Below are positions 9,940 through 56,554 of a DNA stretch of 64,000 bases, one piece after another; the first letter of the stretch is position 1; each line of letters begins with the position of its first letter. The DNA is from Leptodontidium sp. MPI-SDFR-AT-0119 (taxonomy: Eukaryota > Ascomycota > Leotiomycetes > Helotiales > Leptodontidiaceae), in NCBI GenBank assembly GCA_020726505.1, contig JAHLEZ010000012.1:1116001-1180000 (forward strand). The letters are read 5' to 3'. The notes under the pieces were generated by a model. That model made no database searches and was not told the origin of the DNA. It saw only the letters and a list, made by a program, of their open reading frames with translations. A program made the translations under genes and the position numbers.

Positions 9940-11201
9940 TCAATCATAGTACTTTGCACTGACACCCTTGATAATCTCTTGCTCGCCATTTTCCTTCGTC
10001 GAATCTCCGGCTCTATTCACATTCCTCGCAACCCGCGCCTTCACCCATTCTCCAGCTGTCAACACTGGTCCATCTGCCTGTTTATCGAGCCCCAGCTGCT
10101 CTAGCAGTGGACTTGGGATGGTCTTCAGCTCCAGGTCATCTTCAGGTCGGACAAAGTACAACACACCTAGTCGGTCTAGGTGTGCTTGGTCTGGGGGCGG
10201 CGCAACAACTCGGTGGATGCTACTCTTCAAATAGCCGTTTGTAAGGAAGGATAAAGAATCTGCTATGTTGACGGTGATACTTCCAGGGTACGGCTTGACG
10301 TACTTCCAGGTTTCTTGCGGCGTCCGTACCTGGAGCGCTGCAACTGGCTGGCGGAAGAGAAGCGTCAAGCTACCGAAGTCGGTGTGACCTTTCACCCAGA
10401 CGTTATTGATGGCCTGGTTCACTTCTGGGGTCCTCGTATGGTACTTCATGTAGCGTAGGTGGCAGTCGCTTTTCTCCGAATAACGATGAGTCTTGAGGAA
10501 GAAATCCTCCGGAAGCTCCAAGATGATGGCGAAAAGAACCAAAAGTTTGGAAACTACTTCTTCATGAATGTACGTCCCGAATTTGGAAATCTCAGCCCAG
10601 TTGTTCTTGATGAGAGAAGGATGCGGCCGTTCATACTGGGGAATGAATTTGGGGATGTTATAAATTTCTGTGTTGTCAAAGTAGCCTTAACGAAGTCAGC
10701 ATGAGAATGGAATGCTCATATCAAGCTGGGTGGGTGGCAAATCGTTCCCTTTTCGACCCTCTCGGGAATAACGGGAAAACTTTACAGCTTACCTGGGGCG
10801 ATTTCTCGAATTCCTTGTGGCTTGTACCCGTTGTAGCCTCCATTCTCCAAATCAGCTCGATATTTCAACTTTTCTTCAACGTCCAGATTGAAGAATTCTT
10901 TGCCAATAGCAAACTGCCGGTCAACCTCTTCTTGATCAAGTCCAAAGTTGATGATGTAGAAGAAGCCTTGTCACGTCAGCAAATACTTGGGTTTGCTTTT
11001 AGTGGAGGATCAAGCCCTACCAATTTGCTCAATGGCGTTTTTGAGTTGCAATGCTAGTGCTTGTTTGCCTCCAGGAGCATTGAAAGTTGACAGGTCGAGG
11101 GTTGCAAGATCCGCCCAGTCAAGCTCATGGCTTGTTTCCGGCACCTGAGTATACAGCGGAACACTGTTTGCTGCAGACGTCTCAACTTGTGTTTGAGACA
11201 T
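9940..11201 (-). CDS. 2-oxoglutarate/Fe(II)-dependent oxygenase (IPNS-like)
   Basis: Three exons (11201-11021, 10966-10793, 10685-9940) give 366 aa. The N-terminal half is the DIOX_N region (GFFYIINFG at 61-69, then NGGYNGYKPQGIREIAPGYFDN). The C-terminal half is the double-stranded beta-helix core with the iron ligands His219 and Asp221 in GHTDFGSLTLLF and His276 in SSIHRVVAPP. Arg290 in RLGVLYF is a candidate 2-oxoglutarate anchor, although the common RxS motif is here RLG. The family includes isopenicillin N synthase, gibberellin oxidases and many secondary-metabolism hydroxylases or desaturases. A divergent MFS transporter starts 700 bp away and could share regulation, which is speculative. 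The substrate is unknown. Confidence 0.88.
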
Positions 11202-18102: not shown

Positions 18103-19132
18103 ATGTCCCGCAGAAGCTCACGCCTTGCCAAATCCATGTTACCTGCCTCGAAGAAAGTTCGTATGAGCACCATGGACACCTTCAAGCTTCCGGGTACCGA
18201 TGTGCCCGTCAAACTGGTCGATGATCTCTGCAAAGAGGAGGTGTTGGAATTTCCAGCATTCAAAGTAGGCTCTAGCCTCACTTCTAGCATTGGCTAATAC
18301 TGACAATCTCAGAACTGGATCTCAAGCCTACAATCAAATATGGCCCTTCAAAACAATCCCAAACATGTCTATTACAACTCTCCATATGTCCTGCGAGACA
18401 TCAAGATCCAAGCTATCGACCGTTTCGGCAAGCGCATCGGGTTCATGAAGATTGTGGCAAACATCACCAACTCCAAAGGCGAATTCCTACCTGGTGCCAT
18501 ATTCCTACGAGGTGCCAGCGTCGGCATGCTAGTGCTTCTTCAGCCAGATGACTTGCCAGCAGGCAGTCATGACGAGAAGCACGTGATTTTGACGGTGCAG
18601 AGCCGTGCTGCGACTGGAGGTTTGCAATTTGTTGAGCTACCAGCTGGAATGGTGGACAACGGATCATTCTCTGGAACTGCCGCAAAGGAGATTCAAGAAG
18701 AGATTGGCCTGGATATTCCCGAGGACGAGCTGATCAACCTGAGCGAGTTGGCGATCCCGGCTTGCGCTGACGGAGAAGAGCAAAGTCCAAGAGCTATGTT
18801 CCCGAGTCCTGGCGGATGTGACGAATACATTCCGATATTCTTACATGAAAAGAGGATTCCTAGAGAGCAACTGAAAGAGTGGGCTGGAAAGTTGACGGGT
18901 CTAAGAAGTGAAGGCGAAAAGGTCAGTGACTTGTGCAATTTTTAATTTTGTCGCTCAATAGTTATCCGTCGATTACATCATCCGAAAATGTCAGCGAGTC
19001 ACTAATTTTACAATATAGATCACTCTGAAATTGGTCAAGCTGGAGGACTTGTGGCTCGAAGGTGCACGAGATGCGAAAGCCTTGGCTGCATGTGCGTTGT
19101 ACGAAGGTCTGAAGCGGAGTGGAAAATTATGA
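18103..19132 (+). CDS. Nudix hydrolase, NUDT14-like ADP-sugar diphosphatase type
   Basis: Exons 18103-18264, 18313-18921 and 19019-19132 give 294 aa. The Nudix region contains FLRGASVGMLVLL, FVELPAGMVDNG and the catalytic helix AAKEIQEEIGLDI, followed by FPSPGGCDEYIPIFLHEK. In the Nudix box the usual Arg of REUxEExGU is Lys and the first half is one residue short, but the metal-binding EE pair is kept. Sequence style matches plant NUDT14 and related enzymes that hydrolyse ADP-ribose or ADP-glucose. The N-terminus (MSRRSSRLAKSMLP) is basic and could be a mitochondrial presequence. ATG 18103 was chosen as the first ATG in this frame. A paralogue lies tail-to-tail 356 bp downstream. Confidence 0.85.
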
Positions 19133-19488: not shown

Positions 19489-20367
19489 CTACCACGATTT
19501 TGTATCACGCAAAGTCCGTGACCTCTTCAATGCCTCATATAGAGACCACGCCGCAAGTGTCTTTGCATCTCTAGCCCCAACCTTCCAAAGATCCTCATAA
19601 GGCAAAATTCTGACCGTTATCATCTCAGACTCTCCAGTCGTCTTACCACTCAATCTCCCTTTCAGCGATTCGATCTCTTGTCTCTCAAGCACTTTCTCCC
19701 ACAGAAATATTGCGATAAACTCGTCACAGCCACCTGGGCTCGGATACATTCCAATCTGGAGATCCTCCTTGGATTCCAATCCCTCGATTTGACCCAAGGC
19801 AAGCTTTGTCAAATCCTGAAATTCGTCTTCATGCACTGTGAGGCCCGTCTCCTCCCAGATTTCCTTCGCTGCCGCACCGCTGAATGTTTTGTTATCGTCA
19901 ATCATTCCGGCTGGGATCTCCAAGAAGCGGAGGCTTCCCGATGGGATGCGTGGCTGTTCAGTCATAATAACCCATCTCTCCGTATTCGAATCGCTTGGCC
20001 GGAGAATCATGAGCATGGCAACACTGCCTCCTCGTAGAAACGCAATTCCGGGGAGCGTAGAAATCTTCCCGTTCTTGTCAGCCCCACTCCGGACATCTGC
20101 TTTGAGCTTTACAAAGCCTACAAATCTTTTGCTGTCTGGAGTGTCTCTTCCAAACCAATCCACGGACTGGATCGTGACGGATTTGAGCTTATACGGGTTT
20201 TCGTGAAACGGGTGGTTGGGGTCTCTTTGGCCTTCGAGAGAAGTCTTGAGTGTCATCCGCCAGGTGATGAACGCAGGGAATTTGACCAATTGATTTGGTG
20301 TGATATCTGCCCCAGTCTCAAAAATGACATCAACAGGGTCTTCGAAGTCTTCGAGTTGAAACGGCAT
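19489..20367 (-). CDS. Nudix hydrolase, NUDT14-like paralogue
   Basis: One exon, 292 aa from ATG 20367 (MPFQLEDFEDP); an in-frame ATG at 20430 would add 21 residues. It parallels the neighbouring Nudix gene throughout: FLRGGSVAMLMIL, LEIPAGMIDDNKTFSGAAAKEIWEETGL, YPSPGGCDEFIAIFLWEK and the closing LWKVGARDAKTLAAWSLYEALKRS. The Nudix box has Lys instead of the first Glu and Lys instead of Arg but keeps EExG. The gene is intronless while its paralogue has two introns, so either introns were lost here or the copy arose from an intron-poor ancestor. The likely substrate is a nucleoside diphosphate sugar. Confidence 0.85.
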   Translation of the reverse strand: MPFQLEDFEDPVDVIFETGADITPNQLVKFPAFITWRMTLKTSLEGQRDPNHPFHENPYKLKSVTIQSVDWFGRDTPDSKRFVGFVKLKADVRSGADKNGKISTLPGIAFLRGGSVAMLMILRPSDSNTERWVIMTEQPRIPSGSLRFLEIPAGMIDDNKTFSGAAAKEIWEETGLTVHEDEFQDLTKLALGQIEGLESKEDLQIGMYPSPGGCDEFIAIFLWEKVLERQEIESLKGRLSGKTTGESEMITVRILPYEDLWKVGARDAKTLAAWSLYEALKRSRTLRDTKSW

Positions 20368-21188
20368 GACGGCGACTGATGTATGACTTCGTGAAGGGAA
20401 GGATAGAAGATGGTGACTCAAGACAAGCACACAAGCACGAGAGGCTGCTTTTTCGAAGGATGGATTTTCTTCACGATAAGCAGAGTCCGCATTTGGATTT
20501 GATCCGAAGAGATAGTCACTGAGGTCAGAGGGTGTCTTGCCCCCTGAACGTCATGGTAGCACTAGCAAAACTGATTGAGGAAGGTGGTACAGGACTAGAG
20601 ATGCGGAGCCACGACGCAGTGTTACGGCGCGATGGACCCCAAATTTGACAATGACAAACCGAATAATTGGGAGTGACAGCGTAGGTCTGAATCACTGGAA
20701 AGGTATTGGAGATAGCAGAGCAAATTGGAAGCCACCTCTGAAGCCTCTTCAGAAACTGGGGAAGCACCGAAACCTCCATTGTGGCCTGTTGCTGGCAAAA
20801 ATCACACCATGAGGCTCTTTTGCTTCTTGGATGGTGTGTGAAGCTCGGCGGTGGTAGGTCAAAATTCGAGGACAAGATGAGAAGCTGCAAACTAATGGTG
20901 TGACTGCTTCGTCACATAATTGGGTTAGCTGTATTGTACAAGGATGTTGTAAGGCGGAACGGAGCTTCCGTTGCGGGATGTCAGGGGCGAATCAAGTGTG
21001 TTATCGGACACGATTCCCCATTGAGGGTGGTTGCACCACTGAAAGCCCACTTTACTTACTAATACTCGAAGGGTGTGGAGGAGGTTGCGGGTTGCAAACA
21101 TATTCTCCCATTTTCTTCTTTGAATTTGTCGTAGTCGAAATTTTATCCATAAAATACAGCCTGAGCAATCAAATACGCCATATTCAGA
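20368..21188. other. Divergent intergenic region
   Basis: Upstream DNA for the second Nudix gene (-) and the HET gene (+). The open frame at 20525-20890 (-) has no recognisable features. No further gene is supported. Confidence 0.4.
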
Positions 21189-23836
21189 ATGTTATGTGCT
21201 GTTTGTTATGGTGTATTGAGAGGGCATCAAGGAAGTCAATGGCGAGGAACATTTGACTTACATTTTGACCACCAATCAGACGAAGCCGCATTGGAAAAGT
21301 CAGCTGCAACACCAGTCAGCTGTTGCATATGCCGGAGCATACTAGGTGAATTATCTCTTGTCGAGAAGAAAAGGTTGAAACCACAGGACAATCGTATCAA
21401 GGCTCTGAGCGGATTGTACAAATTATTTGGTAGATGGGTCTGGGGGAAATCGCTTCAGCCCAACACAATTAAGACGAAAGATCGGGCTGCATTCATCAGC
21501 GCATATCTCTCTGAACTTCCGGGACTTGAAGAACGGTCAAGAAGGGTAGCAGGCGCTTTCATTCCAAAGATCTACCGTCTTGACTTCAAGCTACGGGACT
21601 CTGAGAGGGTAGGGACATTTGTTTTGGAGCAGATAGGTAATTGATCAACAACATTATTCTCTGCGGATCTCTTTTAACACCAATGCAGGAGATCGATCCA
21701 GCAGGCAGCTTCATACACCGTTCTCTACTAGTACATCGTCAGACGAAGTTCTTGAGGTTGCAAAAACTGTCAGTGCATGTGTTCTTGGTATCCGTGTCAA
21801 TCCCGTGTGAATCTTTGCATTCTTGCAACCTTCTCACAGAAAGGCTTATTTCTCCCTCACTAGAGCAGAGCTAACATAGTTCAAGTGGATCAATCGTTGC
21901 ACAAGTGAAGAACATCCTGAGTGCCCATGTGAACCGTCCGAAGACCCGGAATACTACCCGAGCAGGTTAATTGACCTGGGGAACATGGTCAAAATACTAG
22001 GCCACAAAGAGGTCCGCGACGACCCACCACAAATCGCGGGAAACCTGGACAAAAAAAGGCGAGAAGACAGCAAAGAAGACTCTGAGTACATACGCCTAGT
22101 CTCTAAAGACGAAGAACGCCAGATGATGCGGGGCTTTTATGTGACGTTGAGTCATTGCTGGGGTGGAGCAACGTTTGCAAAACTTACCGAAGACAAAATG
22201 GCTGAATTCAAGCGAGGAATCCATTTGAAAGATTTACCAAAAACCTTCGAAAATGCCATACGCTTTGCGCGTCGCCTGGGACAGAAACCAGGCCAAGTGC
22301 GATACATTTGGATCGACTCCTTGTGCATCATACAAGGTCAGTATAATCCGCTTTCCCTTTCGGCTTCTGTGATTCTAAGATAGATCAATGCTAATGTATC
22401 ACGTAAGCTGCACAACCCAAGAAGCCAACTGAAACCGAGAAGGCTGACTGGCTGAAGGAATCTGCGGAGATGCACTTGATCTATAACAACTCATACTGCA
22501 ATATCTCGGCAACCGCAGCATCAGATAGCACCAAAGGCCTTTTCCTCCCAAGGGAGCCACACCTGCTGTGGGAGGACGAGATCAACCTCAACACAGAAGG
22601 AATTCCGGGATACAGCTCATCTGAGCTCATACAAAGATGCAAGATAGTTGATCTTTCATTTTGGGAACGACATGTAGACGATGCTCCAGTGAACAGGCGT
22701 GCGTGGGTGTTGCAGGAGAGATTGATGGCTCCTAGAGTTCTCCATTTCTGCCAAGACCAGATTGCATGGGAATGTCGAAGGGTCGATGCCTCGGAGTCGT
22801 TTCGCGATGGCATTGCAAGTTTCCGATTAAGAGCAGGGGAAATAGAGCGAGCAGAAAGACTGAAAAGTTTCGTTCCTTGTGGCCCATCCAACTTTGGGAA
22901 TCTCCAGGGACGTTTAGCTACGTATCATCAGTAGGTTTCCACCAATCTCCTATTCCTTCATCACAAAGTCTTAGAGATTCAAGACCCCTCATGACCACCG
23001 ATCCATCGTCTTCTCTATACATATTATTTCAATGCGCTATTACTGATTTTGACGTTTCCCACAGCTGGAAAGCTGTAGTTGAAAGATACTCTAAGACGAG
23101 ACTTACGAACCCTGGCGACAAGCTGATCGCACTGTCGGGAATCGCCAAACTGACGTTCGGTGAACTTCCTGATGTCGAGTATGTCGCGGGACTATGGAGT
23201 GAATACCTGGAGAGCCAACTCCTCTGGCGTGTGGACCCAGTTTTTGAATACGGAAAATTCTCGTTTCCATCATCACGTCCGCCAATTTACCGATCCCCAT
23301 CTTTTTCATGGGCTGCGATCGATGCAGAGAGGGGCATAACATATGGCGAATTCACAACGGAAAATCTTCTGATCGCCATTGAGAAGTTTGATATGTCTCA
23401 GGAAAAGGACGCCGATAAGTTTGGCTTGGTAAAGGAAGGGTGCTTCATTGAGCTCTCAGGCGTTCTTAAACAAATCACTCTGGAGAAACGCATTGATCAA
23501 AGCGGGATCCGGTATTGTTGGGATTTGACAAAAAGTGCTCCTGAACCAGCAGGAGATTCTCGAAAGTTGGGGGACGAATATAGTAACGTCTACTTGGATA
23601 GTCCTCAGGACGATACAGATATCCTCGGTCAAGCAGGCAGGATGTACTGTTTACCAGCTCGGCAGGACCACAACGGCTACTTAATTTGCCTCTTATTGCA
23701 AAAAGATCCGAAGCAAGGGAGTCAATACCGGAGGGTCGGGTTAACGAAAATCCCACGATATGACGAAGTGGGCCAGAAACGAGTCTATGACCCTCAGCGG
23801 CGGCAAGACGTGCCTGTATCAATACGGCTTGTGTAG
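21189..23836 (+). CDS. Heterokaryon incompatibility (HET) domain protein
   Basis: Five exons (21189-21636, 21689-21768, 21880-22336, 22408-22930, 23065-23836) join to 759 aa. The start MLCAVCYGVLRG with CxxC and a later CCICRSIL resembles the short N-terminal cysteine motifs often seen in HET proteins. The HET domain follows with its three signature blocks: YVTLSHCWGG, then IRYxWIDSLCII-type RYIWIDSLCIIQ plus MHLIYNNSYCNISATAASDS, and RAWVLQERLMAPRVLHFCQDQIAWEC. The C-terminal third (YSKTRLTNPGDKLIALSGIAK, then FSWAAIDAERG) is the typical HET companion region. HET proteins trigger or modulate cell death after fusion of unlike mycelia. Partner and allelic state are unknown. The second intron donor (GTCAGT at 21769) was chosen because it alone keeps frame into the WINRC motif. 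Confidence 0.88.
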
Positions 23837-26783: not shown

Positions 26784-26795
26784 GAGTATATATAT
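26784..26795 (+). promoter_or_regulatory. TATA box for the EFE-like oxygenase gene
   Basis: A GAGTATATATATC sequence lies about 60-70 bp upstream of the ATG at 26854. Transcription would then start near 26815-26825, which argues against the upstream in-frame ATG at 26812 and for 26854. Confidence 0.5.
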
Positions 26796-26853: not shown

Positions 26854-28201
26854 ATGTATTTCTCTACCATGATTTCAAAATCTGTACGAGCTAGTCCACG
26901 GCTGCTACGCACTTATAATTCAAGCCATACCCTTAAACTGACTCGATCCATCCCTACGATCCCTACGATCTCTTCAGTTGCCACATATGCCGCCTTCCAG
27001 AGGCATTCTATGGCAACGGTATCTGAGCCACCCCACCCCAAGATGCCCCCGTTCCACAAAGCGACCCCAGGAAATCTACGGACATTTGTCCTCCCAGATA
27101 CAGTCAATGCCAATGACGAAAGCACGAGCATGGCCAAGGCCATGATCAAAGAGTGGAGAGAAACCGGCATATTCCAAATCCAGATGACCCCCGCTCAGCA
27201 AGCCATGCTGACAGAGTGCTTCGAGACGTCAAAGGAGTTCTTCCGTCGTTCTCATGAGGAGAAGTCCAAGCATGTCGACGATCAGAGCTTTGCTGGATAC
27301 ATTGCATCTGGTGAAGAAATCACCGACGGCATTGCGGATTACTCGGAGATCTTTACTGTTACCAAGGACCTCCCATCATCGGATATCCGTGTTCAGGAGA
27401 AGTGGCCTTGCCATGGGCCTACACCATGGCCAAGCAAGCTTTACAAAGATCAGATGGACCAGCTGATGAAGCTTCTCGGGGATTCTGGGGAGAAACTCCT
27501 GAAACTTGTGGGCTTGGGACTGGGACTCAAAGACCCTGATGCCTTGCTCAACCTGACTGAGGACGGATGGCACCACATGAGAATTCTACGATTCCCACAC
27601 GTTGAAAAGACAAACGGGAAGGGTAAAAAGGGCCGTGGTATTGGCTCGCACACGGATTACGGGCTACTGGTCATCGCTGGTCAGGATGATGTCGGTGGAC
27701 TGTTCATCCGACCAAAGATCCAGGGGGAACATATCAAGAACTGGAAGAGCTCTGCAGCTGGATTGAATGAGAACGACGACAAGTGGTTGTTCGTACCTCC
27801 AGTACCCAACACGCTCACAGTATTCCCAGGTATGTGAACCCTCAACCCAATGTCTTAACTCTCGCTGACGATATCCCAACTTAGGCGACATGATGCAGCT
27901 CATAACAAATGACTATCTGCCATCCACGCCCCATAAAGTTGGTCTCAATTACGATGAGCGTTACGCATTTGCATATTTCCACGAACCCAACTTCTCCTCG
28001 GTCATCAAGACTTTGCCCGAATTTCAAGATAAGGCAGAGAAGGTCGACAAGTCTGAGATGATCCACTACGGAACCCATTTCACTGACATGTTCATGCGAA
28101 ATTACCCAGAACGGATCACGGCAGATAGGATCCGTGAGGAAGGCAGGTTGGACATTTTGGCAGGACTAAAGAAAAAAGCAATGAGCAAAACAGTCTTGTA
28201 A
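26854..28201 (+). CDS. Ethylene-forming-enzyme-like 2-oxoglutarate oxygenase
   Basis: Two exons (26854-27829, 27885-28201) give 430 aa. From about residue 74 it aligns end to end by eye with the bacterial 2OG-dependent ethylene/succinate-forming enzyme (EFE, about 350 aa), which makes ethylene from 2-oxoglutarate with L-arginine as co-substrate. Iron ligands are His266 and Asp268 (GSHTDYG) and His342 (STPHKV). The 2OG-binding Arg is Arg351. Counterparts of EFE arginine-site residues are Glu155, Thr157, Arg243, Tyr269 and Arg397. The pocket residues matching Val196, Ala198, Leu206 and Phe283 of EFE are kept (Val273, Ala275, Leu283, Phe357). EFE Cys317 is Asn398 and Val85 is Ile156. The first 60 residues are basic, acid-poor and rich in Ser/Thr, a mitochondrial-type presequence that bacteria lack. 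Without assay, succinate formation with arginine hydroxylation or another 2OG reaction is also possible. Confidence 0.85.
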
Positions 28202-28586: not shown

Positions 28587-30374
28587 CTAATCTTCATCCC
28601 AGTTCTGTGCTTATTAGTTCAGCTCTTCAACACAGGATATGGGTACTCACAGGGTTAGGTCCAGGTGGCTTTGGTCCACCAGCTTGTCGAGCAACAATGA
28701 TCTGGTCTACGGAAAGAACAGTTCGGGCAGCCTCAGTTGCAAGCTTGATAGCCCAACTCTTGGAGATCATAAGATCCAGAATTCCCTCATCCTTGGCGTC
28801 AAGAATGCCGGTATTATCCTCATTCTGGAGATCGTCAGTTGAATCCACACACGCAATGTAGATGTACTTGCCTCAATGTCAACGCCAGTGTCCCAATCAT
28901 CTTTCTTATGGTGTGCAGTGTATAGTCTGCTCAAAACTTCCGTAGCATCAAGACCTGCACTCTCTGCCAGAGTTCTAGGGATGACCTCAAATGCCTCGCC
29001 AAACTTTCGGATAGAATACTGTGCAAGCCCAGGGGTCTTGTCACCGAAAGCTTGTATCCGCTCGACCAATTGCATCTCTGTTGCACCTGCACCAGGAACC
29101 AATCTAGGATCTCTTGTGATCGCCTTCACAACATTGACTCCGTCATCAACAGCACGTTCAATGTCGTCAAGGTGGTTTTGTGTGGCGCCTCGAATGACAA
29201 GAGTGGCCGTTCTTGTAGTCTCGTTCTCTTGTCTGAAGACTGTGACCCGGTCGCCTCCGATCTCCAAAGTCTCTACAATATCAACACTTCCCATCTCGTC
29301 AGGCATGGGTGCACCAAGTCGAGCTAGAGGTGTAGCTCCCACGACTCTGCATAACCGGCGAAGCTCGAATTTGCTCAGAATACGGATGACCAGAATGCCA
29401 AAGCGGTTGAGGTAGTGCATAGCAAGTTCTCCAACAGTAGAACCAGCAACAACTACACGCAGTCCAGAATCGTACAACTCCTTGATATGTGCCTCCAGTT
29501 GCGTTTCCTCTCCCTTGGTGAAATCCATCATTTCCTTAGCATTGTGTAATAGAACCGTGCCCTTCGTCTCCGTTTGACTGGTATCGATTGGACACGAAAA
29601 AACACCGACTTTGGCTCGGACTGCCTTCTTGACGGATCCATCAGGTTCCCGACCAAAGACCATACCCTTAACTACTCGGCTCTGCTCAAGACTTCCTCCC
29701 ATAATCTTGACCACACGGATGTTGTCCACATTGAAGTTGATGGGGTTCTTGGGGAGAACTGCGAGGACGGCCTCGGCGACCATATCTGCGAGGAATTGCT
29801 CGCTGCCGCTCTGCTTGCTAGCAACAACCGTTCGAATAGCCTTGCTGAGTTCTGACTGTGACCGAATATCTTCAACTTTGTCTACAACCAAATTCTCAAG
29901 CTCCTCAAGAGCGAATTTCTGTGCCAGTTCATATCCTCGAATAACATCGCTGGTCTTCAGGCCCATTCGCAGCAGATCCTCAGCTTTCTTCAGAAGCTCT
30001 CCCGCAAGCACAATAACCAAATTTGTAGCATCTCCCATCTCGGCTTCTTGTTGCTGACTTGCCATAACGACAAGCTTTGCTGCTGGGTGTACGACATCAA
30101 GTTCACGGAGGATTGTGGCGGCATCAGATGTGAGGATCATCTTCTGCAGATGGTTGATGACAATCTTGTTTCGGCCATAAGGTCCCAGGGAAGTCTGTAC
30201 AGTTGAAGCAATCGTACGGCAGGCATCGATATTGCGAAGAACAGCTCCATCTTCAGAATCGTAGCTATGAATAGTTAGCTGCTGGCACAGCAGCAAAGCG
30301 CAGCAAGAGACCTACGTATTGTATCCCTGTTTGAACAAACCTGCGTTTGGCGCGTTTGGGATATTAAGAGACAT
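28587..30374 (-). CDS. CCT8: T-complex protein 1 subunit theta (CCT8)
   Basis: Four exons (30374-30316, 30264-28872, 28824-28651, 28604-28587) give 547 aa, the normal length. The N-terminus (MSLNIPNAPNAGLFKQGYNT) and DACRTIASTVQTSLGPYGRNKIVIN identify CCT theta. GDATNLVIVLAGELL is the theta form of the GDGTT nucleotide-binding motif, and VPGAGATEMQLVERI is the later group II chaperonin signature. It is one of eight subunits of the cytosolic TRiC/CCT ring that folds actin and tubulin. The second intron (28825-28871) has a GC donor (GCAAGT) and the last exon encodes only NWDED plus stop; both are needed to give the conserved C-terminus. Transcribed divergently from 30,729 onward. Confidence 0.95.
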
Positions 30375-32937: not shown

Positions 32938-34656
32938 TCAATCGACGCCAGCATACACATCCACCAGGATATTTACGCCTGCTACCACGATCTCAGCCGC
33001 GATTAGGACGATAACTGTTGTGCTGTTAGTTCCGGCTTTGATTATGATAAAAGATGGTTAATGAAGGAGGGGCAGGACTTACCAATCCACTCCAGCATCT
33101 CGCCATGTCCATGACTTAACTGATCCTTCAGAACAGCCAATAAATCCGCAATGACATCCAACCTCTCAGTCAGCAGACTGACTCTCTGATCCATCTCCAA
33201 ATAGCTCCTCACGGCCTGATACACAGGTTCTAATTGCGGCTCCACCCAGAAGAGTTCGGGCGTGTCCAGTACGGACCCGTTCAAATGGATATTGATGCGG
33301 AGGATGAAGAGCTCGCCGATTTGCATATTAATCTGCTTGCGGTTGAGAGCTATCTTTCCGGTTGTAGCGATTTGTGTAGGGATGTCTTTGCAGGTTTCGA
33401 TTGTGTTGTCGACTAGCTCTTCGAAGAGAGATGTCTTGTTTTCCATGTTAATAATCATTTCAGTGAGGTGATTGAGAGTACCAGCTTACCTTCACACTCT
33501 GGGCCAAGGCATGCGAGATTGCAAGCTTGGTCATGTAGTTCCCCTTCTCTCTCAATGTGATGAAATCATTGTATATCCGCGCCTGGTACTCCCGGGTATA
33601 GTAGAAATTGAAGCACTCCGTCTCCACGTCGTCCGCGGCCAACTTCTCGCTCTCGAATTTGGCAATCTCTTTCAGAAATCGCTGTTCATGTTGTAAAGAC
33701 ATGCCCCAGATAACCACAACGCCGTAATCGAACAGGAAAACCTCGGGGGTATGCACTTGAGTATCGAAGTCTAGATTGCTCGCGCTCGCAATATTCTCGT
33801 CCCTTAGTTGGCTCTCCACGATCGACGAGCGCATGTGGGGGATCTCGTTTTCACCATTATTCAATGATGTGTCTCCGCCTTCGGTATGCAGGTCAATCAG
33901 ATCTTCTCGGCGCTGCTTGTTGTTGTCCTCCACCTCAATGGCACTGTCCGAGTGCCTCCTCTCTCGCATCTGCGCTGGCATGGACTGTACCTCCATCATC
34001 CTGCTTGCTGCTCGTTCTGATATCCTGCCATAATGGTATGGAGTATATATGCACTCGTCGAATTGTTTCGGGTTCGCACCCTTCGCTTTCCCTCTGCCTT
34101 TGAGGAAGCGCATCAGGTTGTCCAGCTGGTACTTGTTCGCTGTGCAGTATGCTGTGACTCGTGGCAATCGATCCCGATCCGCTTTCCCCAGTCTCGCAGC
34201 ATCTCTTCGTGCAGTAGGATCCTTGATTCTCGTGTATTGGGAATAGACATCTCGTCCGCTTTCCTCATCTGGGCCATCGTCACCAAAGTCTGGATTGGGA
34301 AGCAGCTTGAGTTTCTGGGTATTCTTCGTCGTTCTCTGCGGTCCGATTTTCGAGACGGGTGCAGTGGACATGGGCATAAGAGGTGAGCCAGAGCTGTTTC
34401 TGCGACGTAGTCTGCTGTTCAATGCTGAGAGCATGGGCTGCTGTGAGGCCTGGAGGGAGGCATTTCCAGGTAGGATAGAGGATGGAATAGCTGGTGTAGG
34501 GCGGGGGACAGAGCTAGTGCCGTTGTCGATCGAAATCACGGATGGGTTCGGATTGAAGGTTACATTTCGACCTTTTCGTTGTGTATCCAGAGAGCTGGGA
34601 GCTGCTGCAGCTGAGGGGAGGAGAGGGGTGCTCTCAGTCGTACTTGTGGAAGCCAT
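32938..34656 (-). CDS. RMD1/RMND1-family protein (DUF155)
   Basis: Three exons (34656-33490, 33434-33083, 33014-32938) give 531 aa. The N-terminal 110 residues are low-complexity Ser/Pro-rich. Then come RVTAYCTANKYQLDNLMRFLKGR, a disordered Ser/Glu insert, and the DUF155 core (VFLFDYGVVVIWGMSLQHEQRFLKEIAKFE, DVETECFNFYYTREYQARIYNDFITL, GKIALNRKQINMQIGELFILR, WVEPQLEPVYQAVRSYLEMDQRVSLLTERLDVIADLL). A single C-terminal membrane segment (VIVLIAAEIVVAGVNILV) is encoded by the last small exon. The family covers yeast Rmd1/Rmd8 and human mitochondrial RMND1. The N-terminus here is not mitochondrial in look, so the cytosolic Rmd1/Rmd8 type is likelier. Biochemical function is not established. Confidence 0.88.
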
Positions 34657-36151
34657 TGGAAATCAATTGGAAGGGCAGAGAGTTCCTCGCAGATCATAGG
34701 TCTGACGGATCCGAAGCCATGAGCTTATATTGATGCTTCGTGATGGTCGAAGTAGAAAGGACGGATTTCTTCAACTGCAGCGCGGCCTGTTCCTCTTTCT
34801 ATGACGTCCAGCGGACTTTGCTCGACAGGTCTTGACTCTCCACTAGTGCCCGTTTTTTGGGTGGGCCACATGCAAAGCCCAACGTCGCTCGGTCGAAATC
34901 GCTATCGATCCAGGAACAAGTCAAATCACATTTATTCCTCTGGAGCATTTGAGGTGGAAAATGAAAATACTGAAAGGGACTCACGACTCTCAGCTCACGA
35001 GAAGATGACTTGTACTTTTCTTTAGGGCAGGCAAGGTCATAGTCTCTGTGCTGTGCGAATTCACTTGATATTAATTCTTTGTTTTTAATTCATTTATCTG
35101 AAGGCATCTCTCTCTCTCACTTTGAATATTGTTAGTTCATGACTTGACATCTGTCTACTATGTAATTCTAGGCTCGGTGCTGTCCTATCTGCGATTTACT
35201 TGGACGGCCATCGACTCGGAAAACTAGCTTTTACATGACGGAGCTTTTCAGTTCTAAAACTTCCTAAATCGCGAGGAGGGTTTGAAATACTTTTTGAAAA
35301 AAAAGTGGCAGTGTCCATTTTCTTTAGTTCAAGAGTTTCAGCAAGATTTCGTTTGGAGTAGTTTTCTTTTTCAAAACGATACATTACCATAAAATATATT
35401 GTTTGCCTCCCGCCGGGGAATATTTGGAAGAGAAGATAGAACTTACGGTCTTGGTTGTTTTGGTCCCTTTTTGGGGATGTTTCATGACGTTTACCCAATG
35501 AAGGGGACGTCGGGTCATGGGCGCGCTGGGTTATTGCTGTTAGACAGCTTTGGTACAGCTGATTCGTTTCGTTCATCTGGTTTCATTTCAAACGCTGCGG
35601 CGAATGAAGTTGTTCTCGGCTCGGGAGTGTTGTACACTGTGAGCGTCGGTTCTGGACATGTTAGCCAGGACGTCATGATGATTGAGGAATTGTGTTCCTC
35701 GGTGGCAGCAGACAATGAGGAATGTTGAGGACTTCTCGCTTATTTGGTTACATAACATGCCCAGCGGACGACCAGGCTGATGGGCAGGTATCCCAAAAAG
35801 TTGCTCCTCTGCTTTACTCAGTCCTTTTTGAGCCAATGTGCGTGTTTTGTTACAGGTGATTCATGTACCCGGAATTTGGATAAGGTCACTTGTCAACTCG
35901 GCCAGTTATATCATCGTCGGTTCATCAAAGCCTGCTTGAATTCAATACTAACGCCTAAAAGACCCTTTTACTTTCTCATTCTGTCAGCAGCGCTGCAAAG
36001 GCGCGGTCAAATACCATCTCTCCCGCCCTCCGGATCATTCGAAAGGAGCAAGTTCTTGAGGGTATCGTGGATTTCGCCCGTCGTCAAGCTCGCATGTAGA
36101 GCGATCAGCTACTGCGTCTCCGCCAGTATGTATGTCCTCTTGGTCGCTTAA
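34657..36151. other. Intergenic region
   Basis: About 1.5 kb holding the promoter of the RMD1-like gene and the 3' flank of the F-box pseudogene. Open frames at 34801-35025, 35196-35576 and 35399-35728 lack domains or codon bias. Confidence 0.45.
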
Positions 36152-43999: not shown

Positions 44000-44218
44000 T
44001 GTAATGGCACGTGCCCTAGCGCTTACTCCCTGTATATATGCGTGTAGAGTGGGGAAGAGATAACCTTCCCTCCTTAGTAATTAGCTTTTATATCATACAA
44101 CATCACTAGCTATTATTTAGTGCCTCTCTAGCTATTCTATTATGGCAAAGTCACCTTAGCGTGCTAGTGATTATTACATTCTAATTGCTTTTCTCTTACT
44201 ATTGGCCTGACTATTACA
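44000..44218 (+). repeat. Putative 5' LTR of element C
   Basis: The AT-rich block begins with TGTAATGG, 41 bp after the tyrosinase pseudogene stop, and the sequence reaches ATTACA at 44213-44218 (or alternatively 44173-44178). TGTAAT...ATTACA would be the inverted ends of an LTR of about 219 (or 179) bp. The partner LTR is outside the window, so the call rests only on the termini and position upstream of gag. Confidence 0.4.
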
Positions 44219-46639
44219 CGATAGTTTAAGCTAGAGAACCCTTATCCGCGGCGCCCAATAGCCCTAAACTATAGGCAACCCCTCTTATAAACTAGAGAAA
44301 GTCTAAAGATATGCTAACTACTAATCTACAAGTGATATAAGAGTAGATTAAGACTCTTAGGAAAAAGAACGATGCCCTCGACAGCCTTATTATCGAATAT
44401 CGCCGGATATACGGCGATGACTTTAATTAATACCCCCCGAACGTGAGGGAAAGGGCACAGCGACTTTAGTAAATGAGACTTAAAGGCAGTACGAATACTA
44501 CAGAAGATCGCCCGCTAGTCGCTAAAGAGTCTCGGGCTCCCCGTTAAGATAAGGGGAAATATATAATACTATCGAAATACAAAGGGAAGAATTAGTGAGA
44601 GCTAATAGAATATTTATAAGCCTATAATCGTGTCTTTAATTACGATAGTGAAAGGTTCCTTACTAACACAGTTAAGATTAAGTAAGTAGCGACATTACTC
44701 TGTAAAGAATTAGCGAATACTTAAGAAAGGTTTAAAAAGTATAATTCTAATACCCTTAATATAATAACTTAAGAGTCTTATAAGGAGTTTCTAGTGAACC
44801 TTTAGTTACTCCCTGTCTCGAGACAAGTAACTAACTCTCACGCTTATAAGACAGCTCGACAAAGACTTAATTAACTTATCTTTGAATTTATTAACTATCT
44901 CGAGGGAAAGGAAAAACAACTTAAGTTATTTACTTAACGTTAATTACGAGATATCTTCTTTAATAAGATTTAACTAAAGATTTACTAGAGAATCGTTAAG
45001 AATAAGTAAGCTAATAAACTATAAATAAGAGAAGATATTATTTTAGTAATAGCCCTTTAAGAAGTATATACTTTACTTAAGGGAAACAATAGTAATAAGA
45101 GACTTAAAGAGCTAAAAAATAAAAAAGAAGAGTCCTCTTAAAAAGCCCTACAAAAGACTAGCAATAAGTAAGAGAGTCCTCGCCTTAATCGATCCAGATT
45201 AAGAAGGGGCAACCCTAATAAGACCTTAGTACGAGGGAAATACTAAGGGTTTAATAAGTCAAAGACTTAATACTTTAAGTATTAAGAGCTTAGCTACTAC
45301 GCTAATAAATGCCTTAAGGTAAATAGTAAAAACTCACTAGACAAGAACTAGAAGAACGCCTAACTCGTAGTTACGTCTAAGTCTCCCTTAAGATTATTAA
45401 GTAAAAGAATAGAAATCTAGCTAAAGATATTAATAAGTAGAGAGTAAAAAAGCCTCACTGCCCTTATTAATAATAAGGCGGAAGACAATTTTGTCTTAAG
45501 ACTAATAATAAAAGAGTACGATTTATAACTTATTAATAAAAGGCTAAAGATATTTCAGATATTACTTAGGAACAAAGGTATTATCCACGGCACCGCGCTC
45601 GCCTAAGTAGAGATTACTAATACCCTTAGACAAACTAAGCTAAATACGCTCCGGCTAAAGGTCATTAATATACTAAGTATTAATTTAATTTTAAGGTGGC
45701 CTTAGTTAGAGGATATTAATCCTTAGATTAGTTTCAAAACAAAACAGTAGAAGTACTTATATTAGTTAAATAATACTTATAATCTTAGTATTATAGAGCT
45801 ATATAAATTCTCTTAACTTATTTAAAAGAAAGAGTCCCTTACGTATACTATAATACTTAACTTAAATATATTACGCCTATTAGACGCCAATAATACACTT
45901 ATTATCCCCTAAGAGTACTGTGAATTTAAAGATGTCTTCTTTAAAGAGAAAGGGAATTAATTACTCCTTTTAGAAAGTCGGCAGTATATTATTAACTTAG
46001 AGCTAAATATAAGACTATTATACTCCCTTATTTATAACCTCTTTAAAATAAAATTAGAGGTTTTCTAAGAATACTTTAAGTCCTCTAAAGTAAAAGGATA
46101 AATACAGAAAAGTAAGAGCTTAACTAGCGCCCCGATTCTCTTTATATTAAAGAAAGATAGTAGCCTTTAATTATATATTAACTATTAAGCTTTAAATAAG
46201 ATTATAGTTAAGGACTAGTACCCCTTATTTTTAATTAACGAAACGTTAGATAGACTCCGGGATAACAAGGTCTTTATTAGCCTAGACTTACGGAATATAT
46301 ATTATTATGTTAGAATTAAGGCGGGAGATAAGTGAAAGACTACTTTTCGCACTTAATACGGGTATTACGAGTATTAAGTTATATTATTTAGGCTATTTAA
46401 TATACTAACGACGTTCTAAGTATATATTAACGACGCGCTAGCGGGACTTATAGACGTTATTTGTGTCGTTTACTTTAACAATATCTTTGTGTACTCGGCA
46501 GACTTGACTTAGTATATAAACTATGTCTACTAGGTCCTCGAAAGGCTACGACAGGCAAATCTCTTTATTAAGCTGTCGAAATACTCGTTTAATACTAAGA
46601 GTATAGAGTTCTTAGGCTATGTCGTATCCCTTACTAGGG

Positions 46640-46886
46640 TGTGACGCTTGCCCTAGAAAGACGGCAATCACGTGTAACTGACGCCTCATATATTAACACA
46701 AGACATATAACAATACTAAGTATCAACTTAGAATCTACAATTATAAAGGAAAGAAGGTAAAGAAAGAATAAATCTATATATAAGAGGTTAGTTTACTTAG
46801 TATTATAGTAATCTCGGTACGTCCCGATTAAGCAGTACTAAGTAGAGTTAGTAGAAATAAGGCTCTAGACAGCGACAGTCGTCACA
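46640..46886 (-). repeat. 3' LTR of copy A
   Basis: 247 bp, plus-strand start TGTGACGCTTGCC and end GTCGTCACA. It matches the other three LTRs with differences that are mainly transitions. Confidence 0.85.
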
Positions 46887-49800
46887 CTACCCCCCCCTCT
46901 AGAAAAAGCTCGTCCTTAAGCGTTAGTCTATCTCCTTGTCACTATCGAGGTCGTCGTAGTCGTTAATACTATCCTCTTATACTTTAATCTATTTAAGTAG
47001 CTTAGTAAGGGGTCTTACTTATTTAAAGTAACTAAAGTAAAAATCCTTAACTTTGTATAAAGCGTACTTAAAGTTAAAGGCATTATATTAGTCTAAGTCA
47101 ACGTCTTAATTAAGTTAAGTAATATAATAAGACAAAGTTTTACTCTTCTTATAATAAGTAAGCACTTCTTTTAGTTCTTACTCGTCGTCGCTTATAATAT
47201 TAATCGGCGGGGGGGCATCTTACACTTAGTTTAGTAAGGGGTCGTTAAGGTCTCGGCGTAGCTTATTAACTAAAAAGACGTTATAGACCTTTATATTCGC
47301 TAGTAATTCTAGGCGGTACAAGTGTCTTACCTTCTCGAGTACTTTAAATAGTCTATTAGTCGACATATCTAACTTCTTAAATAGACGGAGTATCTTAAAG
47401 TAACGTATATTAAACTAAACTAAGTTGTCTTTATTAAAGTCGATATCGCGGCGAGAGGCGTTATAAGACTTAGCTATTTTAACTTAGGCTATAATAAGGT
47501 TTAACTAAGCTATATCTTATACTTTCTTATAGCGTTAAGTATAGTTAATAACTTATTAAGTGTTTAACTTATTAATAGGAGTAATTAAGTTTAATAAGTC
47601 GATTTTCTAGTCCTAATTTATACGTAATACGTATTTATAGATTACTTTAAATAAAGAGAGTCTCCTTAGGGAATCGTATAAAAGGGACATTTAAGTGTAG
47701 TCTATAATAAGGAGGTACTTTAATTAGTCGTCTTAGTAATACGTAATAAAAGGTTAGAGTCGTTTTTATAAGTATTAATTATATACTTTAGTCTAGCCGT
47801 CTATTTATAAGTAGTTAGTAGCAAATAACTGTCTCTTAGTTCCGAGGATCTTACTAAAGATAGTCTAAAACTTAAATATAAACTAAGGACCTTTATTAGA
47901 AGTAATAGTTAATAGGGCTTTAAAGTAGTAATATATATAATAAATATATATAATAGCTAACTTTTAAGCATTTATCGTCTTTTAGTAAGGGATACTAATA
48001 ACTTATTTACTAAATTTATTAATAAAGACAAAGACGTTATCGAATTTATACTTGTTTTTAATAAAGGAGTAATAGTCTATAGTAATATATTCTTATAGTT
48101 TAAATAAAATAAGGAGAAGATAAAAGAATCTAGGCTTTTTATCTTAAGGAACTTAAATTCGTTAGTATATATAATAATTACGGTAGTACTATTAAATTAT
48201 AAACGTAATTCTATATTACTAGTACTAAGAAGAGAATATTTAAATCGTCTTTTTAGTACTAAAGTGTACTATAGTAACTTAATTATAGACCTCTTATATA
48301 AAGAGAGTTTAAAAGTAGTCGACATTAGGGACTAAGAGGCGGCCGTCGTAGAGTAAGAGGTTACCCACTAAGCTAAGTTTACTTAAAGAACTTAATACAA
48401 CTTACTTACGTAAAGCCTATAAAGAAGGAATAATGCGATTAGTTTCTAGGATTTATTATATAATAGAGAATATTAGTGTGAAAGTAACGAGCTTAACGTC
48501 GGCTACTAACGCGTCGGCGTCGTTAAGCGGCCGCAACTCTATAAATAATAAGCTAAAGTTAACTTAATCTTAGCGTAAGAGTTATTAAAGGCGTTAAGTC
48601 TTTTTTGTAGAGTTTTATTAATTTAACTCGTTTAACTTATAAAAAAGTACGTCTATTAAGGGGTTATAGATTTTAAGGCGGTATATAATTATGAAATTAT
48701 AGTTTACTAAGAGCTTTACTTAGAGGTTATAAAGTATTTTAAGGCCTTATAATTTGTTATAACACGGACTTAGTGGGGGGCTCTTACTAACTTAGTATGT
48801 TAATGCCTAAAGGATTTAATAATAGCTAGTATCTTTTTATTATATATTATATAGTTGAGCTTAATAAGTAATATAGTCTTTAAAAAGAAAGTAACGGGGA
48901 ACTAATCGTCGCTATATTATTAGAAAAGGACTCCGGCTATAATATTATTACTAGTATTTGTTTTTAAGAGGCAGGGTAAATCCTATTAATAGTGTCTTAA
49001 AAGAGGTACAGACGTGAGAGTATATTTAAAAAGGTCGAAGGTATCTTTATACTTTATAATAAAGCGGAAGGGAACGTTATTTTTAGTTAATTAAATAAGG
49101 GGTTTTACTATAATATTATAATTATAAATGAATCTTTAGTAAAAGTTATAAAAACTAAGAAAAGATTATATACCTTTAATAAAGTTAAAGTAAGTTTATT
49201 TACGAATAATAAAGACCTTTTTAAGATTAACTTTTAAGTTAGAAGTTAATATAATAAATCTTAAGTACTTGATTTATATTACTTTAAATTCACACTTCTT
49301 TAAGTTAACTTATAGCCTAACGTTATTAAGACGTTAAAGTACCTTTTTGACGTGGAGTTAGTATTATAAGGGGTCCTTAAAGTATATAAGAATATTATTT
49401 AAGTATACTATATAGAAATCATTAAGGTAATTAAAGAGAATATTATTTATATAGCGCTAGTAAGTGGTAAGGCTATTAGTTAAGCTAAATAGAAGAACGT
49501 TATATTTATATACGCTATATCTTGTGCGGAAAGTAATATATTTCTTTAATACTAAGTCTATTTGGATTTAATAAAAGGCTTAACGAATGTTTAATTTAGT
49601 AAAGATATAAGTATTAATTATACGAGCTAAGGTCTTATTAATTAAAAGTAAAGGGTATTAGTCCTTTTAAGTAAGGGAATTTAGTACTCGAAAGTTAATA
49701 TATAACTATAAGGAGTTATTCGGCTTCTTAATAAAGAAAATAAAGGTAGTAAATAATACTTAAGACGGCTTAATAAATCCTTTATTTAAGTTATTTGTAA

Positions 49801-50696
49801 TATATTTTTTTAATAGCCTTAAGTTCTTTAGTCGACATTTTATATAATAGCGAATACTTAAGTACTTTTTTACCCTTTCCTTTTAGCTTAATTTTGTGAT
49901 TATATAAGTAATAAGGGGGAAGAATATTACTTTTTACCTTAAAGAATACGTGAGTTTAATTAGCGTATTTTAAGGGAATTAATAATTTAACGTCTAACTC
50001 TTAAATAGAAAGTGTAAATTATATAATTAACTAGCGGTAGTGAGTGAGTTCGATAGTTAAGGCTACTATAATAGCGGCTTTTTCTCACTCTTAGTTTCTT
50101 TAATTAATTAGAGTATTAATCTCTTAAAAGGTTATTATAAATATCTTATCTTTAGACTTTCGTTTTATTAATATATAAAATATTATAACGCTAATTAAGA
50201 AGATCTTAATAATTAGACGTTAATAAACTTTCTCATGTTACTTTATAATTAGTAACTTATCTCGTAGTTAAGGAGAAGAAGTTAAAGAAGAAAGAGCTTT
50301 TGTAATTAAGTCGTATATGAGAAAAAGTTACGTTTATATCTTTTAAAGTAAATTAACGTAATCTTTAGTATATATTTTACGCGTAAAAGAAGTAAATTAA
50401 GGGGAGTTAGTTTAGTCTCGAGGGTATAAGAGCTTAGCGGTTCCGCTCTTTAACTTAATAACTTCTATTTAAGCTAGTTTAATTAAGATATATGTATTAT
50501 CTAATCGTAAGGACTATTATATATATTAACTAAGCTAGTTATTTAATATACTTTTTAGCTAAAGTAAAGGACTATTAGTAATAGAGTACGCGCGCTCTTT
50601 AGGCTTTATTATATATTATACTTATTAATACGAGAGCTTTACGGTATATAAAGTATTAATAATAGAAGTAAGTTTAATAGTAGTACTAGTATTAGG

Positions 50697-51105
50697 GATT
50701 GGCTAAGGGCAATATTATATACCTGAAAGGCGCGGATTTAAGTATTTCTAACTCTTAAAGATTAATATAAAATTTATTATTAGCGTAGCTTTTCTAATTA
50801 ATATAATAGCGCGGCTATTTCCAAAGGCTACTATATATTTCGAAACGAAGTATTTATTAGAAGGTGTAATAAGAGAAGAAAGTAAGGAATACGTAAGGGG
50901 TTTTATACTTAAAATAAGAAGGAAAGAAGAAGTAGACGAAGTATTAAGTATTAAAGAGACAGGGGGGTGAATTTCCTCCACTAGCGCCGTGGGCTCGATT
51001 CTGGGGGGGTATAAATTCTCGACTCTACACTTTTAGCACGACTATAGCGGATTTCCCTGATCTTTCTTTCTATGACTTACAGTAGTTCCGTGGTTAGAGA
51101 TTAGC
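50697..51105 (-). other. Segment of copy A missing from copy B
   Basis: Copies A and B align on either side (around 59,265-59,285 in B), but A carries about 375-400 bp more. The extra segment is less AT-rich, contains G- and C-runs near 50961-51012, and holds the only longer open frame of the AT-rich zone (50981-50748, 77 aa, minus). That frame reads in the sense direction of A, in the gag-to-protease interval. It may be original retrotransposon sequence deleted from B, or an insertion into A. Confidence 0.5.
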
Positions 51106-53811: not shown

Positions 53812-54058
53812 TATAACACTTGCCTTAGAAAAACGGTAATCACGTGTAACTAACGCCTTATATATTAATATAAGACATATAACGATATTAAGTATTAACT
53901 TAGAATTTATAATTATAAAGGAAAGAAAGTAAAGAAAGAATAAGTTTATATATAAGAGGTTAGTTTGTTTAATACTATAGTAATCTCAGTATGTCCCGAT
54001 TAGGCAGTACTAAGTAGAGCCGGTGGAAATGAGGCTCTAGACAGCGACAGTCGTCACA
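53812..54058 (-). repeat. 5' LTR of copy A
   Basis: 247 bp. On the plus strand its start is TATAACACTTGCC where the partner has TGTGACGCTTGCC, three G-to-A changes at the terminus; its end GTCGTCACA is intact. Confidence 0.85.
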
Positions 54059-56307: not shown

Positions 56308-56554
56308 TGTGACGACTGTCGCTGTCCAGAGCCTTATTTCCACCGGCTCCACTTAATACTGCCTAATCGGGACGTACCGAGATTACTATAATATTAAACA
56401 AACTAACTTTTTATATATAGACTTATTTTTTCCTTACTTTCTTTCCTTTATAGTTATAGATTTTAAGTTAATACTTAGTATTATTATATATCTTATATTA
56501 ATATATAAGGCGTTAGTTACACGTGATTGCCGTCTTTTTAAGGCAAGTGTTATA
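56308..56554 (+). repeat. 5' LTR of copy B
   Basis: 247 bp, starts TGTGACGACTGTCGC and ends GCAAGTGTTATA, where the partner ends GCAAGCGTCACA; the end differences are C-to-T or G-to-A. Confidence 0.85.

What the first reader, a model, noticed from the sequence alone, without database searches (positions are those of the whole stretch)
26854..28201. Fungal ethylene-forming-enzyme-like oxygenase with mitochondrial-type extension
The protein keeps the iron triad (His266, Asp268, His342), the 2OG Arg (Arg351), and counterparts of nearly all residues reported to matter for ethylene formation in the bacterial EFE, including the arginine-binding Glu155, Thr157, Arg243 and Arg397 and the hydrophobic 2OG pocket. 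Most 2OG oxygenases lack this set. It differs at Ile156 (Val85) and Asn398 (Cys317) and adds about 60 basic residues that bacteria do not have. EFE of Penicillium digitatum is known, so the family in fungi is not new, but a mitochondria-targeted form would place ethylene production next to the 2-oxoglutarate pool.
Basis: partly seen in the sequence, partly recalled or inferred. Interest (0 to 1): 0.75.

Follow-up and report, generated by a model that had tools for sequence, protein, structure and literature searches.

The report
Fungal mitochondrial ethylene-forming enzyme relative
This is a fungal gene for a relative of the enzyme that makes the plant hormone ethylene, with a front piece that probably sends it to mitochondria; a fungal enzyme of this kind is already known, and whether this one makes ethylene is untested.

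Summary
A two-exon gene (26854-27829 + 27885-28201) encodes a 430-aa ethylene-forming-enzyme (EFE) family protein. Its best solved relative is the Penicillium digitatum Pd1 EFE (E 4.7e-146); 212 of 357 aligned body residues match P. digitatum P0052. The iron, 2OG and L-Arg residues are kept, it lies inside the fungal EFE clade (100/100), and one such gene was found in the genome. The N-terminal extension is presequence-like and conserved in a relative (27 of 49 residues).

The novelty claim fails. A mitochondrial presequence on P. digitatum EFE was reported in 2014 and the presequence-free form crystallised in 2025. Ile156 and Asn398 are also in P. digitatum EFE.

One caution was missed. At ten positions that separate active EFEs from the ethylene-negative P. 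chrysogenum homologue, this protein has the negative letter at five, including Gly for Ala199, a change that lowers ethylene in the bacterial enzyme. Ethylene formation is likely, not assured. New member of a known kind.

The parts
26854..27829 (+). Exon 1: presequence, DIOX_N domain, start of the double-stranded beta-helix, with His266/Asp268 of the iron site, Glu155, Thr157 and Arg243
27830..27884 (+). 55-nt intron, GTATGT...TTAG, inside the FPG|D stretch. Read-through inserts (8 of 120 listed homologues) or early ends (9 of 120) sit at the same place in public models
27885..28201 (+). Exon 2 with stop: His342 (iron), Arg351 (2OG), Arg397/Asn398 (L-Arg site), C-terminal part
26854..27009 (+). 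N-terminal extension, codons 1-52, basic and without acidic residues: putative mitochondrial presequence
   Evidence: composition, best hydrophobic moment 0.67; 27 of 49 residues identical to relative P0121
27001..27009 (+). Arg50-His51-Ser52: candidate R-2 type cleavage site, about 12 residues ahead of the MPP motif; the Pd1 construct began at Leu37, 13 residues ahead of its own MPP motif
   Evidence: inference from the alignment and the passages; the R-2 rule is recalled
26787..26792 (+). TATATA, 62-67 nt ahead of the ATG at 26854: possible TATA box
   Evidence: a consensus match only
27679..27681 (+). Gly276, the counterpart of Ala199 of the bacterial EFE; Gly is also the letter of the ethylene-negative P. 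chrysogenum homologue
   Evidence: effect of the change in the bacterial enzyme: PMC4202696

Best explanation
The gene encodes a fungal ethylene-forming-enzyme orthologue. The protein is made with a presequence, imported into the mitochondrial matrix and trimmed near residue 51. There it binds Fe(II), 2-oxoglutarate and L-arginine, cleaves 2-oxoglutarate to ethylene and CO2 as the main reaction, and as a side reaction hydroxylates L-Arg to give guanidine and pyrroline-5-carboxylate plus succinate. Shown here: gene structure, family and clade membership, conservation of the catalytic residues, a presequence-like N-terminus conserved in one relative. Inferred: import, cleavage site, ethylene formation and its rate.
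For: Best PDB hit is Pd1 EFE, 9eir, over residues 49-417. The core set E84 T86 R171 H189 D191 Y192 H268 R277 R316 (bacterial numbers) is intact, as in 107 of 120 listed homologues (9 are cut short before the last three columns, 4 differ at one or more) and 36 of 37 bacterial rows. Pocket letters L173 F175 V196 A198 A279 A281 F283 and loop Glu215 are kept. The protein sits in the fungal clade, 100/100, beside the bacterial clade that holds P. savastanoi EFE; P. digitatum EFE lies in the other fungal subclade, so active enzymes bracket it. Ancestral proteins 253 and 326, with the fungal Ile, Asn and Phe, form ethylene (PMC12329707). No acidic residue before position 58; extension conserved in P0121. 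One such gene was found in the genome.
Against: Five of the ten positions correlated with ethylene formation have the P. chrysogenum letter: 22, 199, 235, 254, 278. A sixth, 213, is Gln where the active enzymes compared have Asp or Glu. A199G clearly lowers ethylene in the bacterial enzyme. P. syringae EFE placed in yeast mitochondria was inactive (stated in PMC4202696). Body identity to P. digitatum and to the inactive homologue is equal. No assay of a helotialean member showed in the titles and abstracts of five listings. Hydrophobic moments of the extended relatives vary widely (0.18-0.77), and no trained targeting predictor was run.
Confidence: 0.6

Rival explanations
1. An EFE-family enzyme that makes little or no ethylene and works mainly as a mitochondrial arginine 5-hydroxylase or uncoupled 2OG decarboxylase, giving pyrroline-5-carboxylate and guanidine or simply succinate, as a relative of the ethylene-negative P. 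chrysogenum homologue might.
For: Five of ten ethylene-correlated positions match the ethylene-negative protein. Body identity to P. digitatum P0052 (212 of 357) and to the P. rubens/chrysogenum homologue P0069 (214 of 355) is equal. Gly199 occurs in 12 of the 23 rows of its own subclade. Ancestral proteins 253 and 326 made 5.5-6 times more succinate than P5C (PMC12329707).
Against: I304 and I322 keep the active-type letters and 172 is Ile as in P. digitatum. I304N was the strongest change, and the window does not have it. Changes at 22, 235, 254 and 278 had no significant effect in the bacterial enzyme. In the active reconstructed enzymes the two reactions go together (PMC12329707, abstract and passages). 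What the P. chrysogenum protein does instead of ethylene was not seen in the text read.
Confidence: 0.3
2. A cytosolic EFE: translation starts at the downstream Met53 or Met64, as in several public gene models of relatives, and the upstream stretch is untranslated leader.
For: Public models of P0001, P0002 and P0009 start at the counterpart of Met53, and P0003, P0004 and P0052 at that of Met64. G+C at third positions is 0.42 in the extension, 0.60 in the rest of exon 1 and 0.55 in the in-frame stretch further upstream.
Against: The extension stays in frame and 27 of 49 residues match relative P0121, whose first Met aligns with Met1, with one 3-residue gap within it. Met53 has T at -3, Met1 has A at -3 (the -3 rule is recalled). 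The same short-model error is documented for P. digitatum.
Confidence: 0.08
3. A general 2OG oxygenase outside the EFE family that resembles EFE by convergence.
For: None found.
Against: Match over residues 49-417 with E 4.7e-146 and clade support 100/100. The seven other matches in the same genome share at most 35% identity, over part of the length.
Confidence: 0.01

Closest known systems
Penicillium digitatum EFE (Pd1 / efeA; PDB 9eir, 9eis; compared here through 9eir and through P0052 of strain PHI26)
   Same: Homology over nearly the whole length, the Fe/2OG/L-Arg set, Ile at 85, Phe at 280 and Asn at 317 (bacterial numbers), N-terminal mitochondrial presequence
   Different: 212 of 357 body residues identical. 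The window has Met22, Gly199, Ile212, Gln213, Asp235, Met254 and Tyr278 where P0052 has Leu, Ala, Ala, Asp, Glu, Ile and Phe. Different fungal subclade.
Penicillium chrysogenum/rubens EFE homologue (P0069), ethylene-negative when expressed in yeast
   Same: 214 of 355 body residues identical; Met22, Gly199, Asp235, Met254 and Tyr278 shared
   Different: The window has Ile172, Ile304 and Ile322, where P0069 has Thr, Asn and Val. That P0069 is the tested protein is inferred from its ten letters (MTGYSDMYNV), which equal the changes listed in the paper.
Pseudomonas savastanoi/syringae PK2 EFE (PDB 5v2t and others)
   Same: Catalytic triad, 2OG Arg, L-Arg-binding residues, hydrophobic pocket, Glu215 loop
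   Different: 178 of 340 body residues identical; no such N-terminal extension; Val85, Cys280 and Cys317 instead of Ile, Phe and Asn
EFE homologues of Cadophora sp. (P0003), Oculimacula yallundae (P0001), Bisporella sp. (P0004), Podosphaera aphanis (P0006)
   Same: In the same subclade; P0003 309 of 350 body residues identical. The P. aphanis record already bears the name ethylene/succinate-forming enzyme.
   Different: Models P0001, P0003 and P0004 lack the N-terminal extension; P0006 has a different one

Membership tests
EFE (ethylene/succinate-forming 2OG oxygenases) | 2-His-1-Asp iron site (H189, D191, H268) and 2OG-binding Arg277 | tested here: met
   H266, D268, H342, R351
EFE (ethylene/succinate-forming 2OG oxygenases) | L-Arg-binding residues E84, T86, R171, R316 | tested here: met
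   E155, T157, R243, R397
EFE (ethylene/succinate-forming 2OG oxygenases) | EFE-specific loop (about residues 209-237) with Glu215 | tested here: met
   Loop present, IRPKIQGEHIKNWKSSAAGLNENDDKW, with Glu at the 215 column
EFE (ethylene/succinate-forming 2OG oxygenases) | Hydrophobic 2OG pocket (L173, F175, V196, A198, A279, A281, F283) | tested here: met
   These seven letters are identical to PK2 EFE. P93, also near 2OG, is Ser, as in P. digitatum and 117 of 120 listed homologues.
EFE (ethylene/succinate-forming 2OG oxygenases) | Groups with assayed EFEs in a tree | tested here: met
   Within the fungal clade with P. digitatum, 100/100, beside the bacterial clade with PK2, 73 rows. The ethylene-negative P. 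chrysogenum homologue lies in that fungal clade too. No outside family was in this tree; the one outgroup tried had too long a branch.
Ethylene-competent EFE | Ten positions correlated with ethylene formation (Johansson 2014) | tested here: inconclusive
   Window M I G I Q D M Y I I. Five equal the ethylene-negative protein, three (172, 304, 322) are of the active type, 212 is hydrophobic as in the active enzymes, 213 Gln fits neither. The paper itself found the ten not sufficient.
Ethylene-competent EFE | L-Arg-dependent ethylene release from 2OG | not testable with these tools
   Needs an enzyme assay
Fungal mitochondrial EFE | Cleavable mitochondrial presequence | tested here: inconclusive
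   Composition and conservation fit. No trained predictor was available, and import was not tested.

The most novel reading that the evidence does not exclude
The window's EFE subclade (Cadophora, Oculimacula, Bisporella, Podosphaera, Trichoglossum, Geoglossum and others), with Gly at the Ala199 position in 12 of 23 rows, is a mitochondrial arginine 5-hydroxylase and 2OG decarboxylase with ethylene as a minor product. It would feed pyrroline-5-carboxylate and guanidine into matrix metabolism and would show that ethylene output in fungal EFEs was lost or tuned down repeatedly.
Probability: 0.25. Interest if true: 0.45.

Novelty: new member of a known kind. Interest (0 to 1): 0.22.

Why it matters
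It adds a well-defined helotialean member to a family whose only purified natural fungal enzyme, in the papers seen here, is that of P. digitatum. The subclade it belongs to has mixed letters at the ethylene-correlated positions, so one assay would help tell which fungal EFE homologues really make ethylene; several database records carry that name while one tested close homologue made none. It would also bear on why fungal EFEs are sent to mitochondria. It does not reveal a new kind of system.

Tried and rejected
The idea that the presequence-bearing form is new was rejected after reading parts of PMC4202696 and PMC12060275.

The idea that Ile156 and Asn398 set it apart was rejected: both letters are in P. 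digitatum EFE, where the N380C variant had a partition ratio and kinetics comparable to wild type.

The root by the 29%-identity paralogue of the same genome was rejected because its branch was 5-10 changes per column long (83 rows). The tree was rebuilt without it and drawn with the bacterial rows as outgroup, so the bacteria/fungi root is assumed. The alignment held 159 rows: window, PK2, 120 listed homologues and 37 of 38 bacterial loci (L045 gave no usable frame). One search used 73 of these: window, PK2, 58 of the 120 homologues and 13 of the 37 bacterial rows. Left out were the homologues under 350 residues (15 of 120), all but seven of those ranked 61-120, P0029 and P0039, and 24 bacterial rows (19 not chosen at the start, 5 for long branches, odd make-up or redundancy).

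A search with residues 1-72 alone gave one relative, P0121, of 11 candidates. NCBIfam gave no family. An assay of a helotialean EFE: none seen in the titles and abstracts of five listings, each cut to at most 25 papers; the library lacks most subscription journals. None of the 25 papers listed of 116 holds the word A199G, although PMC4202696 does. PMC9101411 (abstract, and a word search of its main text) describes five new EFEs and does not hold the words fungi, Penicillium or Fusarium.

What was seen of each paper: PMC12060275 abstract, section 20, passages; PMC4202696 abstract, whole results section; PMC12329707 abstract, section 16, section 19 part 1 of 2, passages; PMC7558865 abstract and passages; PMC11018352 and PMC10467617 passages; PMC9101411 abstract and one passage.

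No structure was predicted: the spliced protein is not given letter for letter by the window, so it was not sent.

Full report
What is there. Positions 26854-28201 (+) hold a two-exon gene: exon 1 26854-27829, a 55-nt intron 27830-27884 (GTATGT...TTAG), exon 2 27885-28201 with stop; 430 aa. Pfam finds DIOX_N (2.3e-18) and 2OG-FeII_Oxy (1.4e-14). NCBIfam has no match. The intron place is backed by public models of relatives: at the same FPG|D position eight of 120 listed homologues carry a read-through insert before GDMMQ, nine more end within 18 residues after it, and one (P0099) runs on out of frame.

Family. The best solved structure is 9eir, the P. digitatum Pd1 EFE (E 4.7e-146, residues 49-417). 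The P. savastanoi EFE entries follow at 2e-105 to 4.5e-101, then 9ovh at 1.6e-26 (filed under the EFE name; I take it to be the ancestral protein Anc357 of PMC12329707), then differently named oxygenases from 1e-22. Body identity is 212 of 357 to P. digitatum P0052, 178 of 340 to PK2 EFE and 309 of 350 to a Cadophora homologue. The protein database gave 1062 homologues at E <= 1e-3 among 7651 candidates, 120 of them listed; the closest with names are from Oculimacula, Cadophora, Bisporella and Podosphaera. A neighbouring gene, 33460-34662 (RMD1/DUF155), also matches Cadophora best (90%) and then Rhynchosporium (86%), so the window is most likely from a helotialean fungus (the order is recalled). 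In the genome (77 Mb, 69 contigs) one such gene was found; the seven other matches to the protein are at most 35% identical over part of the length.

Residues. In bacterial numbers the set E84 T86 R171 H189 D191 Y192 H268 R277 R316 is intact, as it is in 107 of 120 listed homologues (nine are cut short before the last three columns, four differ at one or more) and in 36 of 37 bacterial rows (one lacks the first two columns). The pocket letters L173, F175, V196, A198, A279, A281 and F283 and loop Glu215 equal PK2 EFE. Ancestral proteins 253 and 326, with the same Ile, Asn and Phe letters, form ethylene (PMC12329707, section 19 part 1 and passages).

PMC4202696 (results section read) compared two active enzymes with the P. 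chrysogenum homologue, which made no ethylene in yeast, and listed ten correlated positions. At 22, 172, 199, 212, 213, 235, 254, 278, 304, 322 the letters are: PK2 LVAVEEIFII, P. digitatum P0052 LIAADEIFII, P. rubens P0069 MTGYSDMYNV, window MIGIQDMYII. The window equals the negative protein at five (22, 199, 235, 254, 278) and the active type at 172 (as in P. digitatum), 304 and 322. Position 212 is hydrophobic, as in the active ones, and 213 is Gln. In PK2, A199G, I304N and V212Y/E213S clearly lowered ethylene; the changes at 22, 172, 235, 254, 278 and 322 did not significantly. C280F also lowered it, but Phe is the letter of active P. digitatum EFE as well as of the window. So the window carries one of the changes that mark the negative protein and lower activity (199), and lacks the strongest one (304). 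The paper also found the ten not sufficient: putting the active letters into the P. chrysogenum protein gave no ethylene.

Tree. With 73 rows (IQ-TREE, LG+C20), fungi and bacteria separate at 100/100. The window sits with Cadophora and Oculimacula (100/97), within a subclade of 23 rows (98/80) whose named members are also Bisporella, Podosphaera, Trichoglossum, Geoglossum, Bathelium, Aulographum, Teratosphaeria and Pseudocercospora (names). The active P. digitatum and the inactive P. chrysogenum/rubens enzymes both lie in the other fungal subclade, close together. Active enzymes on both sides (bacteria and P. digitatum) favour an active fungal ancestor, but the close kinship of an active and an inactive Penicillium protein shows that activity can go fast. 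Position 199 changes at least 13 times on this tree; Gly is present in 12 of the 23 rows of the window's subclade and in 25 of the 120 listed homologues.

N-terminus. The first 52 residues hold 5 Arg, 2 Lys, 2 His and no acidic residue; the first acid is at 58, and the best 18-residue hydrophobic moment is 0.67. Of 122 proteins examined (120 listed homologues, P0121 and the window) the body start could be located in 106; 66 of these, window and P0121 included, have an extension of at least 30 residues. In 56 of the 66 the first 35 residues have at most one acid and at least three Lys/Arg, against 128 of 5300 random internal segments of the same 106 proteins; hydrophobic moments in the 66 range from 0.18 to 0.77. 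A region-only search found P0121, which matches the extension at 27 of 49 residues (body 162 of 176), with its first Met under Met1 and an in-frame gap of three. This argues that the stretch is translated and under looser constraint, as presequences are. Against it, third-position G+C is lower in the extension (0.42) than in the rest of exon 1 (0.60). A conserved FQRHSM may hold the cut (Arg50-His51|Ser52), close to the place where the Pd1 construct starts (inference). That fungal EFE carries a mitochondrial signal is already in print: PMC4202696 gives a MitoProt probability of 0.9491 and a cut after residue 33 for P. digitatum, and the same start-codon mistake in its first gene model; [quoted passage not shown]

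Mechanism. By homology: Fe(II) and 2OG bind, L-Arg binds and is required, and O2 turns 2OG into ethylene and CO2; a side path hydroxylates L-Arg to give guanidine and P5C (PMC10467617 passages; PMC12060275 abstract). In the matrix the enzyme would sit beside the 2OG pool and beside P5C-using enzymes (recalled). The rival, a mainly arginine-hydroxylating or uncoupled enzyme, is kept at 0.3 because of the letters above. In P. digitatum, loss of the gene removed ethylene but did not change virulence (PMC7558865 abstract), so no virulence role is claimed here.

Verdict. Real, correctly read, and ordinary for fungi: a new member of a known kind, with one open and cheaply testable point, whether this subclade makes ethylene.

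Noticed in passing
44000-64000: G+C falls from 0.44-0.49 to 0.26-0.32 with TA/AT 1.7-1.8 and (CA+TG)/(AC+GT) 0.2-0.3, against 0.6-0.8 and 1.2-1.4 in the rest of the window: the signature of repeat-induced point mutation. Whether the block is made of repeats was not tested.
   Followed up: partly
9940-10686 (-): A second 2OG-Fe(II) oxygenase open frame (PF03171), one of 27 PF03171 matches counted exon by exon in the genome.
   Followed up: no
18304-18945 (+) and 19489-20550 (-): Two neighbouring NUDIX open frames in opposite directions that look alike by eye, perhaps an old inverted duplicate; similarity was not computed.
   Followed up: no
28767-30311 (-): A TCP-1/cpn60 chaperonin open frame (PF00118, 4.5e-137) lies tail to tail with the EFE gene. 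Other neighbours are NUDIX, HET (21880-22383) and RMD1/DUF155 (33460-34662); no biosynthetic cluster was seen among the open frames scanned.
   Followed up: partly
P0001 (Oculimacula yallundae homologue): The public protein model runs from the EFE body into a ubiquitin domain (PF00240) and lacks the C-terminal L-Arg site; probably a gene-model error across two genes.
   Followed up: no
P0003, P0004, P0052 (start at MPP) and P0001, P0002, P0009 (start at MAT): Public models of EFE homologues that start at an internal Met and so lack a presequence, probably the same mistake as documented for P. digitatum.
   Followed up: partly
P0051 (record named Austropuccinia psidii): A homologue filed under a rust fungus groups with Diaporthe proteins (100/95): contamination or transfer.
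   Followed up: no
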